From: Variovorax boronicumulans
GTDB taxonomy: Bacteria > Pseudomonadota > Gammaproteobacteria > Burkholderiales > Burkholderiaceae_C
Reading direction: 5' to 3'
Assembly (NCBI RefSeq): GCF_029892485.1
Contig: NZ_JARXVG010000009.1
Span: 124,001-188,000 of the forward strand
Length of the DNA stretch: 64,000 nucleotides
Shown here: in pieces, positions 58,160-64,000 of the stretch
How positions within the stretch are numbered: position 1 is the first letter of the stretch
How the letters are laid out: the number at the start of each line of letters is the position of its first letter
Notes under the pieces: model-generated
The model's input: the letters and a program-made list of their open reading frames with translations, nothing else
Told to the model about the DNA's origin: nothing
Databases searched by the model: none
Position numbers and translations under genes: made by a program

Positions 58160-59332
58160 ATGTCTTCCATGCCCCCCCCGCCAACGCCCCGCGCCACCGA
58201 CCTGGACTCCCGCCACGCGGCCATCGCGCTCGGGCTTTCGCTGCCGGCCGACGTCGTTCTCTACCTGCTGCTGCCGATGTACGCCGGGCAGTTCGGCGTG
58301 TCGCTGGCCGAAGTCGGCATGCTGCTCGCGGCCAACCGGCTGGTGCGCATCGCGGGGTACCGCTGGGTTGCGCGCTTCTATGCGCGCAACGGCGACCGGC
58401 CGACCTGCACCATCGCCGTCGTGGCCGCCGCCGTCTGCGGCGTGGGCTACGCGACGCTCTCGGGTTTCTGGGCGCTGCTGCCGCTGCGGCTGATGTGGGG
58501 GCTGTGCTTCGCGGCGCTCAATCTTTCCACGCAGGCGCTGGCCACGGCCGACCCGATCGGCGCGGCGCGCCGCAACGGGCGGTCGCGTGCCTTCATCGCG
58601 ATGGGGCCGGTGCTGGCGCTGCCGCTGGGCGCGGTAATGGCGCACTGGGTCGGGCCGCGCGCGATCTTCGGCGTTCTTGCGGTGTTCTCGCTGCTGGCGG
58701 TGTTCGCGACACGGCGGCTGCCGGCGGCACCGCATCGCGTGGAGAGGCCGGCGCGTCGCTTCAAGCGGCCCGACAGCCTCGACGGCTGGTCGTTCATGGA
58801 AGGGCTGGCGCTCGACGGGCTCTTCATCGTCGGCCTGTCCTATCTCGGCAAGGACCTGCTGCCGGGCAGCGCGGTGATCGTGGCCGGCCTGCTGCTGGCG
58901 TTGCGCTACCTCGCGGAGATCTTCCTGAGCCCGGTCGGCGGACACCTGGCGGAACGCTTCGGTGCCGAGCGCCTGCTGGTGAGTCTTTCGCTCATGACGG
59001 CCATCGCGCTCGTGGGTTTCGGCTTCGGCTGGCTCTGGAGCTGCGCCGCGCTGATCGTGGTGCTGCGCGCGTTGCAGTTGCCCTTGCTGCCGCCCATCGT
59101 GGCGCGCCGCACGCCGGGGCCCGAACGCGTGCATGCGCTGGCCGCGCGCTCGGTGTGGCGCGACATCGGCGCCGGCACCGGGCCGCTCATCGCGGGGCTG
59201 CTGCTGCCGGTCGCGTCGCCGCCGTGGGTCTACGGCATTGCCGCATTGCTGCTGGCGGGCATGGCGCTGGCCTGCGGCCGGAATCCATCGCACCATCCGA
59301 CATCCCACACGCAGGAGCGAACTTCAAGATGA
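58160..59332 (+). CDS. MFS transporter
   Basis: The protein of about 390 residues has roughly twelve hydrophobic segments after a Pro-rich N-terminus (first helix YLLLPMYAGQFGVSLAEVGMLL). No substrate-specific motif was recognised. Its stop overlaps the start of the PPOX gene by ATGA. ATG 58160 was chosen; an in-frame alternative at 58121 would lengthen the tail. Confidence 0.85.
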   Translation: MSSMPPPPTPRATDLDSRHAAIALGLSLPADVVLYLLLPMYAGQFGVSLAEVGMLLAANRLVRIAGYRWVARFYARNGDRPTCTIAVVAAAVCGVGYATLSGFWALLPLRLMWGLCFAALNLSTQALATADPIGAARRNGRSRAFIAMGPVLALPLGAVMAHWVGPRAIFGVLAVFSLLAVFATRRLPAAPHRVERPARRFKRPDSLDGWSFMEGLALDGLFIVGLSYLGKDLLPGSAVIVAGLLLALRYLAEIFLSPVGGHLAERFGAERLLVSLSLMTAIALVGFGFGWLWSCAALIVVLRALQLPLLPPIVARRTPGPERVHALAARSVWRDIGAGTGPLIAGLLLPVASPPWVYGIAALLLAGMALACGRNPSHHPTSHTQERTSR

Positions 59333-59949
59333 CGACTTCCCATGCCATCGACACCGTGGCCCGGCTCGAAGCCCTGTTCGGCCAGCCCGGCGAAGCCTCG
59401 CTCAGGAAGGAGGTGCCGTACCTGCATCCGAGCTACCAAGCGCTGATTGCCGCATCGCCGTTCGCGGTGCTCGCGACGACCGGCCCCGAGGGGCTGGATG
59501 CATCGCCGCGCGGCGATGCGCCGGGTTTCGTGGCGGTGCAGGACGAGAAGACGCTGCTGCTGCCCGAGCGCCGCGGCAACAACCGCCTCGACAGCCTGCG
59601 CAACATCGTGACCGATCCGCGCGTGGCCTTGCTCTTCCTGATTCCCGGCGTCGGCGAAACGCTGCGCGTGAACGGAAGAGGGCGCATCACCGTCGATCCG
59701 GGCGTCATGGCGCGCTTTGCCGTGGAAGGCAAGCTACCGCAATGCGTGATCGAAATCCAGGTGGAGACGGTCTACTTCCAATGCGCCCGCGCGATCCAGC
59801 GCTCGAAGCTCTGGGCACCAATGGCTGCGGACGCAAAGCGCGAAGTGCCGACGGCCGGGGCCATTCTTTCTGCGCTGACCAATGCGGCGTTCGACGGCGC
59901 GGCATACGACCGGGAACTGCCGGCGAGGCAGCAGGCAACTTTGTACTGA
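59329..59949 (+). CDS. Pyridoxamine 5'-phosphate oxidase-family flavoprotein
   Basis: This 206-residue split-barrel protein has PFAVLATTGPEGLDASPRGDAPGFV and LPERRGNNRLDSLRNIV, the pattern of MSMEG_1061-type FMN-dependent PPOX proteins, and CARAIQRSKLW near the C-terminus. These are probable FMN- or F420-type oxidoreductases of unknown substrate, not the vitamin B6 enzyme itself. It is co-translated with the MFS gene upstream. Confidence 0.88.
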   Translation: MTTSHAIDTVARLEALFGQPGEASLRKEVPYLHPSYQALIAASPFAVLATTGPEGLDASPRGDAPGFVAVQDEKTLLLPERRGNNRLDSLRNIVTDPRVALLFLIPGVGETLRVNGRGRITVDPGVMARFAVEGKLPQCVIEIQVETVYFQCARAIQRSKLWAPMAADAKREVPTAGAILSALTNAAFDGAAYDRELPARQQATLY

Positions 59950-60027: not shown

Positions 60028-60052
60028 TGGCAGTGTAGACTGCCAGGTTTTT
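60028..60052 (+). terminator. Intrinsic terminator/attenuator just before the DUF3348 gene
   Basis: TGGCAG, loop TGTAGA and CTGCCA form a perfect 6-bp stem (60028-60045), followed by GG and five T. It lies 78 bp after the PPOX stop and only 14 bp before the DUF3348 start codon. It either ends the MFS-PPOX transcript or acts as an attenuator for the motor operon; the loop itself contains a -10-like TAGACT. Confidence 0.55.
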
Positions 60053-60065
60053 CCAATTGGCGGTA

Positions 60066-60731
60066 ATGGTGCAAGTGTCAAGGCGCACAGGCTTCACCGG
60101 CTCGGCGCTGATTCGCTTGCTCGCTCGACTGACCGACATCGAAGTCCCCGAGCCCAGACAGGCTTTCGCGGATCGATTGAGCCAATGGCTCGGCTGGACC
60201 GATGCCATCTCCCTGTCTGCGGCGCTGAACGGCGGCGTGGCGCCAGCGTCTTCCGGCGTGCGTTCGGCCGGCAATCCCGAAGAACGCGAATGCAACCGCG
60301 TGCGCGCCGCGCTGGCCAGCGCCATCGCGCAAGACATGCAAGGCGCCGCACGGGACGCCACGGCCGACTTTGCGGCCTGTCGCCGGCGCTACCACGCCAG
60401 GCAGCAGGCGATGCAGTCGAGCATCGGCCCCTTGCGGGGGCGCATGCGGTCGACGCTGGCAACGCGTTCGCCGGACATGGCACGGCTCGCGGCGGTGGAT
60501 GTGGTCATGGAGCAGGTGCTGGGTGCACAGGAGCATCGATTGCTGGCGACCGTGCCCGCGATGCTCGAGAAGCACTTCGAGCGGCTGCGGCAGGCCGATA
60601 CAGATACCGAGGGCGAGCCCGGCGCGTGGCTGGGCGTGTTCCGCAAGGACATGAACGACGTGCTGCTCGCCGAGATGGAAATCCGATTTCAACCGGTCGA
60701 AGGGCTGCTCGAAGCCCTTCGCGCAAGGTAA
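60066..60731 (+). CDS. DUF3348 family protein, first gene of a putative motor operon
   Basis: This 221-residue soluble, mostly helical protein starts VSRRTGFTGSALIRLLARLTD, which I recognise as the DUF3348 family (from memory). It has no signal peptide, no membrane segment and no catalytic motif that I can see; charged heptad-like helices dominate residues 75-210. The stop is 10 bp before the DUF802 gene. A cytoplasmic partner or adaptor of the membrane complex is the simplest guess (inference). Confidence 0.8.
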   Translation: MVQVSRRTGFTGSALIRLLARLTDIEVPEPRQAFADRLSQWLGWTDAISLSAALNGGVAPASSGVRSAGNPEERECNRVRAALASAIAQDMQGAARDATADFAACRRRYHARQQAMQSSIGPLRGRMRSTLATRSPDMARLAAVDVVMEQVLGAQEHRLLATVPAMLEKHFERLRQADTDTEGEPGAWLGVFRKDMNDVLLAEMEIRFQPVEGLLEALRAR

Positions 60732-60741
60732 CCAGAGTTTC

Positions 60742-62841
60742 ATGACCCAACTTCTTCATCGCATCGTCTTCGTCGTCGGCCTGGCCGTCGTTTGCTGGGT
60801 CGGCATCGGATACATCGGCTCGAACCCGCTGGCGCTGGCGATCACCGTGCTCATCGGCGCGTTCTACGTGGTGGGCGCGCTGGAGCTGCACCGCTTCGGA
60901 CAGGCGACGACCACGCTGACAAGGGCCGTCACCGACATGCCCGCGCCGCCGACCAGCCTGGGCGAATGGCTCGACAAGCTGCATCCTTCATTGCGCAACG
61001 CGGTGCGCCTGCGCATCGAGGGCGAGCGCGTCGGCCTGCCCGGCCCGGGCCTCGCTCCGTACCTCGCGGGCCTGCTCGTGCTGCTGGGCATGCTGGGCAC
61101 CTTCCTCGGCATGGTGGTCACGCTGAACGGCACGGGCACGGCGCTTGAAGGCGCGTCGGACCTGCAGGCCATGCGCGCCTCGCTGGCCGCGCCGGTCAAG
61201 GGCCTGGGCGTGGCCTTCGGCACCTCGCTCGCGGGCGTGGCAACCTCGGCGACGCTCGGTCTTCTCTCGGCCCTGAGCCGGCGCGACCGGCTGCAGGCCG
61301 CGCAGCTGCTCGACACGCGGATCGCGACCACCTTGCGCGTTTTCTCGCTGGCGCATCAGCGCGAGGAGTCCTTCAAGCTGCTGCAGCGCCAGGGCGAGGC
61401 GATGCCCGCCCTGGTCGACCGGCTGCAACTGATGATGGCGACGATGGAGCGCCACAGCCAGGCGCTGAACGAGCGCCTGATTTCCAGCCAGGACAGCTTC
61501 CACGGCAAGGCCGAGGCCGCGTATGCGGGCCTGGCGTCTTCCGTCGGCCAGTCGCTCAAAGATGGCCTCGCCGACAGCGCCCGCATCGCCGGCGCGACGA
61601 TCCAGCCGGTGGTCGAAGCCACCATGGCCGGCATCGCCCGCGAGACCGCCTCGCTGCACCACACCATCGAACAGAGCGTGCAACGGCAGCTCGACGGACT
61701 CTCCACCCGCTTCGAGGCCAGCACCACCACCGTGGCCGACATCTGGAAGACCGCGCTCACTGGCCAGCAACGCACGAGCGAAGCGCAAGCCAAGGATTTG
61801 CGCGCCACGCTCGACCAGTTCGCGCAGACCTTCGAGCAGCGTTCGGCTTCGCTGGTGGACGGTGTCGCCACGCGCCTTGAAACCACGGTCGAGCGCATGT
61901 CGGACAACTGGCGCAGTGCGCTCGCACAGCATGAGCGCGCGAGCGAAACCCTCTCGGGCGACACGCACCGCGCGCTGACCGCAGCAGCCGCCACCTTCGA
62001 GCAGCATTCGGCATCGCTGCTCGGCACCGTGGGCCAGGCGCACGCCGACCTGCAGGCCGAGATGGCTTCGCGCGACCAGCAACGCCTGTCCGCCTGGACC
62101 CAGGCGCTCGAAGCGATGGCCGTGTCGCTCCAGCAAGAGTGGCAGCAGGCGGGCGCGCGCAGCGAGAACCAGCAGCAGGAAATCTGCACGACGCTGGCGC
62201 AGACCGCCAAAGACATTTCCGCCCAGAGCGAAGCGCATGCGAAGAGCACCATCGCCGAGATCGGTCAGCTGATGCAGGCCGCCTCCGAGGCGCCCCGCGC
62301 CGCCGCCGAGGTGATCGCCGAGCTGCGCCAGAAGCTCTCGGACAGCATGGCGCGCGACAACGCGATGCTCGACGAGCGCAGCCGCATCCTCGGAACACTT
62401 GAAACGCTGCTCGATGCCGTGAACCACGCATCGACCGAACAGCGCTCGGCCATCGATGCGCTCGTGGCCACGTCGGCCGACCTGCTGGACCGCGTCGGCA
62501 CGCGCTTCACCGACAAGGTCGACACCGAAACCGGAAAGATGGCCGACGTGGCCGCGCAGATCACCGGCAGCGCCGTCGAAGTGGCGAGCCTGGGCGAGGC
62601 CTTCGGTTTCGCGGTGAAGCTGTTCACCGAATCGAACGACAAGATGAGCGCGCACCTGCAGCGCATCGAAAGCGCGCTGGGCAAATCGATGGTGCGCAGC
62701 GACGAGCAACTGGCCTACTACGTGGCGCAAGCCCGCGAGGTCATCGACCTGAGCATCTCGTCGCAGAAGCAGATCGTCGAAGACCTGCAGCAGCTCGCTG
62801 CGCAACGCGATCACCGCGCAACAGCGGGCAGCGAAGCGTGA
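60742..62841 (+). CDS. DUF802 protein: MotA/ExbB/ZorA-like membrane protein with long helical tail
   Basis: The 699-residue protein has four predicted membrane helices (about 8-27, 29-48, 106-128, 153-178). APYLAGLLVLLGMLGTFLG resembles the TolQ/ExbB/MotA core, and Thr120 and Thr161 fall where ExbB/TolQ have their channel Thr residues. From about 180 to the end it is almost entirely predicted helix. Repeats are visible around W335 (KTAL..FEQRSASL) and W390 (RSAL..FEQHSASL), about 55 residues apart, as known for DUF802. Length and layout match ZorA (about 700 residues with a long cytoplasmic tail). Role: ion-driven stator/motor, inferred. Confidence 0.82.
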   Translation: MTQLLHRIVFVVGLAVVCWVGIGYIGSNPLALAITVLIGAFYVVGALELHRFGQATTTLTRAVTDMPAPPTSLGEWLDKLHPSLRNAVRLRIEGERVGLPGPGLAPYLAGLLVLLGMLGTFLGMVVTLNGTGTALEGASDLQAMRASLAAPVKGLGVAFGTSLAGVATSATLGLLSALSRRDRLQAAQLLDTRIATTLRVFSLAHQREESFKLLQRQGEAMPALVDRLQLMMATMERHSQALNERLISSQDSFHGKAEAAYAGLASSVGQSLKDGLADSARIAGATIQPVVEATMAGIARETASLHHTIEQSVQRQLDGLSTRFEASTTTVADIWKTALTGQQRTSEAQAKDLRATLDQFAQTFEQRSASLVDGVATRLETTVERMSDNWRSALAQHERASETLSGDTHRALTAAAATFEQHSASLLGTVGQAHADLQAEMASRDQQRLSAWTQALEAMAVSLQQEWQQAGARSENQQQEICTTLAQTAKDISAQSEAHAKSTIAEIGQLMQAASEAPRAAAEVIAELRQKLSDSMARDNAMLDERSRILGTLETLLDAVNHASTEQRSAIDALVATSADLLDRVGTRFTDKVDTETGKMADVAAQITGSAVEVASLGEAFGFAVKLFTESNDKMSAHLQRIESALGKSMVRSDEQLAYYVAQAREVIDLSISSQKQIVEDLQQLAAQRDHRATAGSEA

Positions 62842-63488
62842 TGACCGAGGACATCGACGCCGGCACCGAGGCCTCGGTGCCGGTATGGGCCGTCTTCGGC
62901 GACCTGATGTCGGGTTTGCTGGGCGCCTTCGTGCTGATCCTGGTGTGCGTGATCGGCATGCAGCTCGAACTCGCGACCAAGCTCGAGGCCGAGGTCAAGC
63001 AGCGCAAGGTCGAGGCCGAGCGGCTGCAGACGCTCGAGCAGGCACTGGCCGGGCCGCTCGCGGCGGGCCGGGTGACGCTGAACAACGGGCGCATCGGCAT
63101 CAGCGGCAGCGTGCTGTTCGCGTTGAACTCCGCGGAATTGCAGCCCGAAGGCCGGCAGTTGCTCAAGAGCCTGGCGGCACCGCTGACCGCGTACCTCCAG
63201 GCCCGCGACGAGATGCTGATGGTGAGCGGCTTCACCGACGACCGGCAGGTGCGCGGCGGCAACCGCCAGTTCGCGGACAACTGGGAGCTGTCGGCCCAGC
63301 GCGCCTTGACGGTGACGCGCACGCTGATCGAGGAGGGCATTCCGTCGTCGTCGGTCTTTGCTGCGGCGTTCGGTGCCGAGCAGGCGGTTGCGTCGAATGC
63401 CGATGCCGACGGGCGATCGAAAAACCGGCGCGTGGAGATGGCGCCCACGCCGAAGCGTTCGGACCTGAAGACAAAGCCTCGTGAGTAG
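62841..63488 (+). CDS. OmpA/MotB-like peptidoglycan-binding protein with intramembrane Asp (ZorB-like)
   Basis: This 215-residue protein has one N-terminal membrane helix (about 22-40) preceded by WAVFGDLMSGLLG. Asp21 sits at the helix start as in ZorB and MotB, where it carries the ion. A coiled segment (45-70) leads to an OmpA domain (about 85-200) with SGFTDDR, NWELSAQRALTV and GRSKNRRVEM, the peptidoglycan-binding signature. Its ATG overlaps the DUF802 stop (TGATG). Together they look like a ZorAB/MotAB-type ion channel pair. Confidence 0.88.
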   Translation: MTEDIDAGTEASVPVWAVFGDLMSGLLGAFVLILVCVIGMQLELATKLEAEVKQRKVEAERLQTLEQALAGPLAAGRVTLNNGRIGISGSVLFALNSAELQPEGRQLLKSLAAPLTAYLQARDEMLMVSGFTDDRQVRGGNRQFADNWELSAQRALTVTRTLIEEGIPSSSVFAAAFGAEQAVASNADADGRSKNRRVEMAPTPKRSDLKTKPRE

Positions 63489-64000
63489 CGACGAAGCCAA
63501 CGGTGTCGACGCGACGCTCGACGCATGGCGCGAGCGCGGGGCACATCGCCTCGACCCGGTCCGTTTTCATTTCATCGAGACGCTGGCCAGGCGCGCCGCA
63601 GACCACGGCGGGGATGCGCGGCGCATGCTGGACGAGCGGGTGGCCGCACTGCTTGCGGCTTATGGCGAGGAATTCGAAAGCGCGCCAGACACGGCAACTG
63701 CTGCTGTCAGGCAGTCCGTACGCGGGCCGCTCGCGGAGCTGACCGACCACTTGGCGAAGCACGCTTCGTCCGATCGGATGGACCCGGCGACCAACGAGCT
63801 GAAGATGCTCCAGTTCTTCCGGAGCACCTGGTCGAAGCTGAGCGCCGAACGCCGCCTCACGCAATCGCTGGCCAGGCTACCGCAGAACGCCGGCCCGCTC
63901 AACTCGCACAACCTCGTGCACCAATCGCTCACGCTGATGCGCGAGCTGTCGCCCGAGTACCTCAACAAATTCGTGTCGTATGTCGACGCCTTGCTGTGGG
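63481..64000 (+). CDS. DUF2894 family protein (partial, runs off right edge)
   Basis: An open frame starts at GTG 63481, overlapping the end of the OmpA-like gene by eight bases, and stays open for 173 codons to the window edge. The start SSDEANGVDATLDAWRERGA and the segment LDPVRFHFIETLARRAADHGGDARRMLDERVAALLAAY resemble the DUF2894 family (from memory). The visible part is helical and soluble, with the conserved LRELSPEYLNKFVSYVDALLW-like end pattern. It belongs to the motor operon; the function is unknown. Confidence 0.78.
   Translation, partial: MSSDEANGVDATLDAWRERGAHRLDPVRFHFIETLARRAADHGGDARRMLDERVAALLAAYGEEFESAPDTATAAVRQSVRGPLAELTDHLAKHASSDRMDPATNELKMLQFFRSTWSKLSAERRLTQSLARLPQNAGPLNSHNLVHQSLTLMRELSPEYLNKFVSYVDALLW

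What the first reader, a model, noticed from the sequence alone, without database searches (positions are those of the whole stretch)
60066..64000. Four-gene ZorAB-like motor operon with two uncharacterised partner proteins
The genes are translationally packed (gaps of 10 bp, -1 and -8). They encode a 699-residue MotA/ExbB-like protein with a roughly 500-residue helical tail, a 215-residue OmpA protein with an Asp at the start of its only membrane helix, and soluble DUF3348 and DUF2894 proteins. Sizes and layout of the membrane pair match the Zorya ZorA/ZorB motor, but ZorC/D/E are absent and no other defence gene is nearby. This could be a proton-driven machine that transmits force from the peptidoglycan to DUF3348/DUF2894, with a defence, envelope or surface role.
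Basis: partly seen in the sequence, partly recalled or inferred. Interest (0 to 1): 0.85.

Follow-up and report, generated by a model that had tools for sequence, protein, structure and literature searches.

The report
A once-per-genome Zorya type III motor
This four-gene cluster is a known kind of bacterial anti-phage machine (Zorya type III, an ion-driven membrane motor with two helper proteins); what is unusual is that nearly every species of the genus examined carries one copy, at changing chromosome sites, usually behind the same short leader sequence.

Summary
Four packed genes start at 60066; the last runs off the window and ends 92 bases beyond it. It was described and shown to restrict phages in 2021 (PMC8565338) and has been reported in Variovorax (PMC11953036), the genus here.

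Three points go beyond what I found in print. (1) DUF3348 is in 97 of 100 species of this genus, none with two full copies (HsdR control 47 of 100), and in 84 of 87 species of a second genus of another family, although the 2021 paper calls these systems patchy at genus level. (2) The 41 genus loci examined lie in about 20 neighbourhoods; five genomes show the window's site empty and carry the operon elsewhere. (3) A leader, TGTARAMT-N6-TTTT, lies just upstream. In 27 genomes chosen among those that have it, it occurs nowhere else. It looks like a promoter core whose start falls in a T-run.

DUF3348 and DUF2894 are predicted all-helical, with no recognisable nuclease, so the type III effector step remains unknown. 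Membership is near certain; the mechanism is inference.

The parts
60034..60052 (+). Leader element TGTAGACT-N6-TTTTT; probable promoter -10 core (TAGACT 60036-60041) with the predicted start in the T-run (60048-60052)
   Evidence: in 27 chosen genomes that have it, the only match in the genome; strict form in 95 of 130 distinct leaders against 0 of 684 other upstream regions. Promoter role is inferred.
60066..60731 (+). DUF3348 protein, 221 aa (ZorF in the papers; labelled ZorG3 in PADLOC-DB)
   Evidence: Pfam 1.6e-79, PADLOC 2.9e-90; AlphaFold2 all-helical, pLDDT 85.5, pTM 0.79
60742..62841 (+). ZorA3, 699 aa: MotA/ExbB/TolQ-like membrane part, then a long tail with two 55-residue-spaced DUF802 repeats (residues 320-372 and 375-427)
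   Evidence: PADLOC ZorA3, E 0; Pfam DUF802; repeats; match to solved ZorA 8vvn_C
62841..63488 (+). ZorB3, 215 aa: one membrane helix with Asp21, then an OmpA-type peptidoglycan-binding domain
   Evidence: PADLOC ZorB3 6.6e-115; OmpA 1.3e-18; matches to 8vvn_B and 8qyd_F; the membrane Asp in 161 of 161
63481..64000 (+). DUF2894 protein, first 173 of 203 codons (ZorG in the papers; labelled ZorF3 in PADLOC-DB); it ends beyond the window, at L001 8093
   Evidence: Pfam 3.5e-57, PADLOC 2.3e-70; completed in L001

Best explanation
The cluster is a complete Zorya type III anti-phage operon of a Variovorax species. Shown here by sequence: ZorA3 and ZorB3 have the residues of an ion-driven, peptidoglycan-anchored motor, and they come with DUF3348 and DUF2894. 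Shown in print for another member: the four genes together restrict phages in E. coli. Inferred: ZorA and ZorB form a 5:2 inner-membrane motor as in types I and II; ZorB holds the cell wall and senses its local disturbance when a phage injects; ion flow turns or shifts the long ZorA tail; the two all-helical cytosolic proteins dock on the tail and carry out or pass on the response. As neither looks like a nuclease, they more probably block or mark the incoming genome, or recruit a host enzyme, than cut DNA themselves. Expression is probably driven by a short leader that travels with the genes. The module is kept at one copy per genome while its site and allele are exchanged within the genus.
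For:: all four proteins match the PADLOC type III models (ZorA3 E 0; ZorB3 6.6e-115; DUF3348 2.9e-90; DUF2894 2.3e-70). Searches (PMC8565338; PMC11890865): definition, restriction assay, motor model of types I and II; matches to solved ZorB and ZorA. (161 sequences each, some from the same genome twice): ZorA Thr120 154 of 154 and Thr161 151 of 156 without gap, the ZorB membrane Asp 161 of 161. The four genes in one order: 61 of 61, 76 of 80 (the other four are loci of which only 5.6-6.8 kb is held, each lacking one end gene) and 20 of 20 loci; near-fixation against the HsdR control; about 20 neighbourhoods, tree conflict, empty sites; leader element.
Against: Nothing here shows phage restriction by this very operon. 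No defence genes lie next to it. Near-universal presence (97 of 100 species) is unlike most defence systems and would also suit a physiological envelope role. No type III complex was predicted, so the 5:2 motor and the docking of DUF3348 and DUF2894 are inference. The DUF2894 model is only moderate (pTM 0.49). PMC11890865 proposes that all Zorya subtypes recruit a nuclease-like complex, which the two partners do not resemble. The leader is not universal: 3 of 41 genus loci and 15 of 20 loci from other genera of the family lack the exact pattern.
Confidence: 0.75

Rival explanations
1. The operon is mainly a physiological envelope or cell-wall surveillance motor of these genera; phage restriction is a side effect seen on expression in E. 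coli.
For: Presence in 97 of 100 species of the genus and 84 of 87 of a second genus, without a second full copy, no defence neighbours, no match in 50,697 phage records, and only 27 of 72,556 plasmid records, all of them 366 kb or larger.
Against: Two 98-99% complete genomes of the genus lack it (G047, G080); only 44 of 150 genomes of the family and 8 of 370 of the class have DUF3348, so it is not generally needed; its site and allele turn over within the genus, which suits an arms race better; published restriction.
Confidence: 0.2
2. A flagellar or gliding stator or a Tol/Exb-type energiser.
For: MotB and OmpA family matches of ZorB and a MotA/TolQ-like match of ZorA.
Against: The flagellar MotB, MotD and MotS models among the 25 of 40 NCBIfam rows shown are all far below their cut-offs, while the PADLOC type III models match along nearly the whole proteins. 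NCBIfam's ZorA_1, ZorA_2 and ZorA_4 models are below their cut-offs too, as expected for another type. The constant DUF3348 and DUF2894 partners fit no stator.
Confidence: 0.03
3. A type III variant that kills or arrests the infected cell by opening the ZorAB ion path, with DUF3348 and DUF2894 as gatekeepers and no DNA-directed step.
For: No nuclease-like family or fold found in either partner; PMC8565338 proposes that the two proteins regulate ZorAB.
Against: PMC11890865 saw no depolarisation with types I and II, before or during infection (passage), and proposes that all subtypes recruit a nuclease-like complex. Absence of a fold match is weak evidence. I lowered these odds from 0.25 to 0.2 after reading the passage.
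Confidence: 0.2

Closest known systems
Zorya type III (ZorA3-ZorB3-DUF3348-DUF2894; PMC8565338)
   Same: Same four families; model matches along nearly the whole proteins.
   Different: Nothing tested sets the proteins apart. New here are the near-fixation per genus, the site turnover and the leader.
Zorya types I and II (ZorAB + ZorCD or ZorE; PMC11890865)
   Same: MotA/MotB-like pair, long ZorA tail, membrane Asp, peptidoglycan-binding ZorB; matches to 8vvn (chains B, C) and 8qyd.
   Different: No ZorC, ZorD or ZorE and no recognised nuclease or helicase in the operon; ZorA tail with DUF802 repeats.
UTP-sensitive (reiterative) promoters such as carAB P1, codBA, upp, pyrBI
   Same: A T-run at the predicted start, 6 nt (89 of 95) or 7 nt (6 of 95) behind a -10-like hexamer; for the E. 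coli promoters see PMC6245113 (passages).
   Different: No transcript start has been mapped; any nucleotide sensing here is a guess.

Membership tests
Zorya type III | ZorA and ZorB of type III | tested here: met
   ZorA3 E 0, ZorB3 6.6e-115
Zorya type III | DUF3348 and DUF2894 genes flanking the pair | tested here: met
Zorya type III | Motor residues: Asp in the ZorB helix, Thr in the ZorA pore helices | tested here: met
   Asp 161 of 161, Thr120 154 of 154, Thr161 151 of 156 (gaps set aside)
Zorya type III | Peptidoglycan-binding OmpA domain on ZorB | tested here: met
   (OmpA 1.3e-18); Leu150 and Arg154 of the motif 161 of 161 (numbered there one higher). Binding itself not tested.
Zorya type III | ZorA5B2 assembly with a rod-like tail | not testable with these tools
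   No complex prediction offered; tail length and repeats only
Zorya type III | Restricts phage | not testable with these tools
   Shown in print for the S. nitritireducens operon only
Zorya type I / II | ZorC and ZorD, or ZorE, in the operon | tested here: not met
   0 of 10 flanking proteins hit PADLOC; the two partners match the DUF3348 and DUF2894 models
Flagellar MotAB stator | Curated MotB model above its cut-off | tested here: not met
   MotB, MotD and MotS models among the 25 of 40 rows shown are all far below cut-off; PRK09040.1 'hypothetical protein' is above its own

The most novel reading that the evidence does not exclude
In these genera Zorya type III is no longer an optional defence but a near-obligate, one-per-genome surveillance motor. 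It is swapped between strains as a four-gene cassette with its own dedicated promoter, whose start lies in a conserved T-run, so that expression may follow nucleotide (UTP) levels and rise or fall when infection drains the pool. Two copies may exclude each other.
Probability: 0.2. Interest if true: 0.75.

Novelty: new member of a known kind. Interest (0 to 1): 0.45.

Why it matters
The distribution raises a testable question: why does an anti-phage system sit, once, in almost every species of two genera of different families, when its discoverers described patchy distribution at genus level (PMC8565338, section 16)? The leader gives a handle: a short sequence that, in the 27 genomes searched, occurs only at this operon suggests dedicated expression control; I saw no description of it. 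Of the three published Zorya types, type III is the one without a recognisable DNA-acting partner, so its effector step is open.

Tried and rejected
No structural relative: Foldseek against the PDB gave no match at E <= 0.001 for DUF3348 or DUF2894. VIA-align gave only helical-bundle scores (best Z 9.7 and 5.7), within what the tool calls common for helical bundles. A missing match does not show a new fold.

An RNA hairpin as the conserved leader feature: the window's leader folds (z -2.24) and has the palindrome GGCAGT-GTAG-ACTGCC, but the palindrome is not kept in many relatives whose TGTARACT and T-run are (read by eye), so I prefer a DNA (promoter) element. I ran no covariation test; one of the 18 rows of the alignment (L222) had wrong coordinates and that alignment was not used.

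A fixed core locus: rejected for the genus, flanks are not shared genus-wide. The site grouping rests on a rough gene caller of my own and may split some sites. In the second genus 20 loci fall in only four site groups, so turnover is less marked there. An ordinary mobile element: no phage record, only large replicons among plasmids; integrases at the junctions were not sought beyond the PADLOC and Pfam scans of ten neighbours.

A first rpoB tree was wrong, because I guessed strands by counting stops; one search replaces it. Two of 61 genomes (G054, G057) were dropped from the trees because their rpoB match was partial.

A first, tighter leader pattern (TAGACTNNNNGGTTTTT) was found in only 6 of 10 genomes, each time once and at the operon.

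Full report
What is there. The fourth gene continues 92 bases past the window and is 203 aa in the genome. Pfam names DUF3348, DUF802, OmpA and DUF2894.

What it is. PADLOC-DB has models for exactly this set: ZorA3, ZorB3 and the two DUF proteins, all matched. Payne et al. 2021 (PMC8565338; passages, section 16) named it Zorya type III. They report that each of their three new systems, the S. nitritireducens type III operon among them, significantly reduced plaquing of at least one phage in E. coli BL21-AI and protected liquid cultures from phage PVP-SE1 at MOI below 0.1. Mariano et al. 2025 (PMC11890865; passages) describe types I and II as 5:2 motors; in the passages I saw, type III appears only as a locus and in its distribution (Burkholderia, Xanthomonas, Stenotrophomonas, Ralstonia, Paraburkholderia). 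A Variovorax paper lists 'Zorya Type III' among PADLOC calls in its strain (PMC11953036, passage). Names differ between sources: the papers call DUF3348 ZorF and DUF2894 ZorG; the PADLOC-DB models are labelled the other way round.

Organism. G014 contig C2 has 2,479,635 bases, the length of CP063167.1 Variovorax paradoxus, with DUF3348 at the same place; G059 contig C11 has the length of a Variovorax sp. ZS18.2.2 contig. Both are genus-mates of the window, so the genus is Variovorax (inference from these matches).

Motor features. A profile of ZorA N-termini finds solved type I ZorA (8vvn_C, E 1.3e-6); a ZorB profile finds 8vvn_B (2.7e-7) and 8qyd_F (4.9e-7) below many MotB/OmpA chains. That 8vvn and 8qyd are Zorya type I structures is recalled; the tool names them MotA/TolQ/ExbB, MotB-related and membrane proteins. 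Over 161 sequences each (61 + 80 + 20, some from the same genome twice), ZorA Thr120 is kept in 154 of 154 and Thr161 in 151 of 156 without gap; the ZorB membrane Asp in 161 of 161 (that script numbers ZorB from one codon earlier, so Asp21 is its residue 22). ZorA length varies from 602 to 1048 aa in the 61 genome loci and up to 1229 aa in the named loci (starts chosen by my script, and the shortest, 578 aa, is cut by a contig edge). The tail carries DUF802 repeats, commonest spacing 55 residues, then 131 (133 distinct proteins, two fragments left out).

Partners. AlphaFold2 gives DUF3348 as an all-helical protein (pLDDT 85.5, pTM 0.79) and DUF2894 as all-helical with less certain packing (80.5, 0.49; first 173 residues only). 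No structural or family match suggests an enzyme.

Distribution. DUF3348 is in 97 of 100 genomes of the genus. In three of these there are two partial matches: side by side in one (G017, a split gene) and on separate contigs in two (G028, G058); so no genome shows two full copies. HsdR_N in the same 100 genomes: 47 (46 over the cut-off); Fisher p 1e-16, which ignores relatedness. The three genomes without DUF3348 also lack a close ZorB (best E 1e-12); one of them is only 62% complete. In the family 44 of 150 genomes and 39 of 126 genera have it (this sample includes the window's genome and one genus-mate); in the class 8 of 370 (also with the window's genome). In the genus of G393, another family of the class, 84 of 87 have it, and one of the three misses has a full ZorB. 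Copy number is far from Poisson (again ignoring relatedness). The 2021 paper says of its systems that distribution at genus level is patchy. Plasmids: 27 of 72,556 records, all 366 kb or larger. Phages: 0 of 50,697. I checked DUF3348, not all four genes, in these counts; the four-gene check was made on the fetched loci.

Site and allele turnover. I fetched 40 genus loci on long contigs, of the 96 other genomes with a match, and 20 of the 42 from other genera of the family. All 61, with the window's own, have the four genes in order. By shared flanking genes the 41 genus loci form 8 shared sites and 12 singletons. The window's site reads upstream MFS - FMN-binding (PNPOx) gene - operon - downstream MFS - M48 peptidase; in G089, G086, G062 and G093 the same genes lie together without the operon, and in G014 all but the M48 gene were seen within the 4.3 kb held, while their operons are elsewhere. 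An rpoB tree and the Zor tree (39 genus members) correlate (r 0.59, Mantel p 0.001) but conflict: of 28 supported Zor splits 9 are shared and 14 contradicted by supported rpoB splits. Single-gene trees of the operon's own genes also conflict in part (4 to 7 supported splits in the genus), so some of this is tree error or exchange within the operon. G038 and G048 group with the window's clade by rpoB but carry a ZorA only about 50% identical over its best segment, at another site. So the module is kept while place and allele change.

Leader. Upstream of DUF3348, whatever the flank, most loci have TGTARACT, six bases, then a T-run. The strict form is in 95 of 130 distinct leaders and 0 of 684 upstream regions of other genes in the same loci; a relaxed form in 110 of 130 and 3 of 684; the T-run begins 6 nt after the hexamer in 89 of 95. 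The pattern was drawn from these leaders, so only the control counts are independent. TGTARAMT-N6-TTTT fits 38 of 41 genus leaders, 20 of 20 of the second genus, 5 of 20 of other genera of the family and 53 of 75 named leaders. It was then sought in 27 whole genomes (12 Variovorax, 15 of the second genus) chosen from those whose leader had been seen and fits: each has exactly one match, 10-39 bases upstream of the DUF3348 match. That it is there is by choice; that it is nowhere else in 27 genomes is the result. The pattern read backwards matched in 3 of 27, once each. In the second genus 20 of 20 loci have the four genes and the relaxed leader, in four site groups. No -35 box is conserved and the simple scan finds no sigma-70 promoter. 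Taking TARAMT as the -10 hexamer puts the start in the T-run; T-runs at the start allow slippage controlled by UTP in E. coli (PMC6245113, passages). That last step is a hypothesis.

Verdict. Membership in Zorya type III is as sure as sequence allows. The mechanism is transferred from types I and II up to the motor; what DUF3348 and DUF2894 do is inference. New and worth testing are the one-per-genome near-fixation and the leader.

Noticed in passing
window 60742-62841 (residues 320-427): The ZorA tail holds DUF802 repeats 55 residues apart; in relatives ZorA length varies from 602 to 1229 aa, with 55- and 131-residue repeat spacings.
   Followed up: partly
window 59329-59949 and L158-L161, L163: The gene before the operon is an FMN-binding (PNPOx) protein; in five genomes this site is empty, with PNPOx beside the MFS gene that follows the operon here.
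   Followed up: yes
G017:C8:92070-92882; G065:C112:31532-32140: Probably broken DUF3348 copies: split in two pieces in G017, an in-frame TAA in G065, while a long ZorB match remains in both.
   Followed up: partly
PADLOC-DB models PDLC00652-PDLC00658: The labels ZorF and ZorG are exchanged between the PADLOC-DB models and the two papers.
   Followed up: no
Plasmid records: Type III Zorya genes on large replicons (366 kb to 3.5 Mb) of Caballeronia, Paraburkholderia, Burkholderia, Cupriavidus and others; none of the 27 records is smaller.
   Followed up: no
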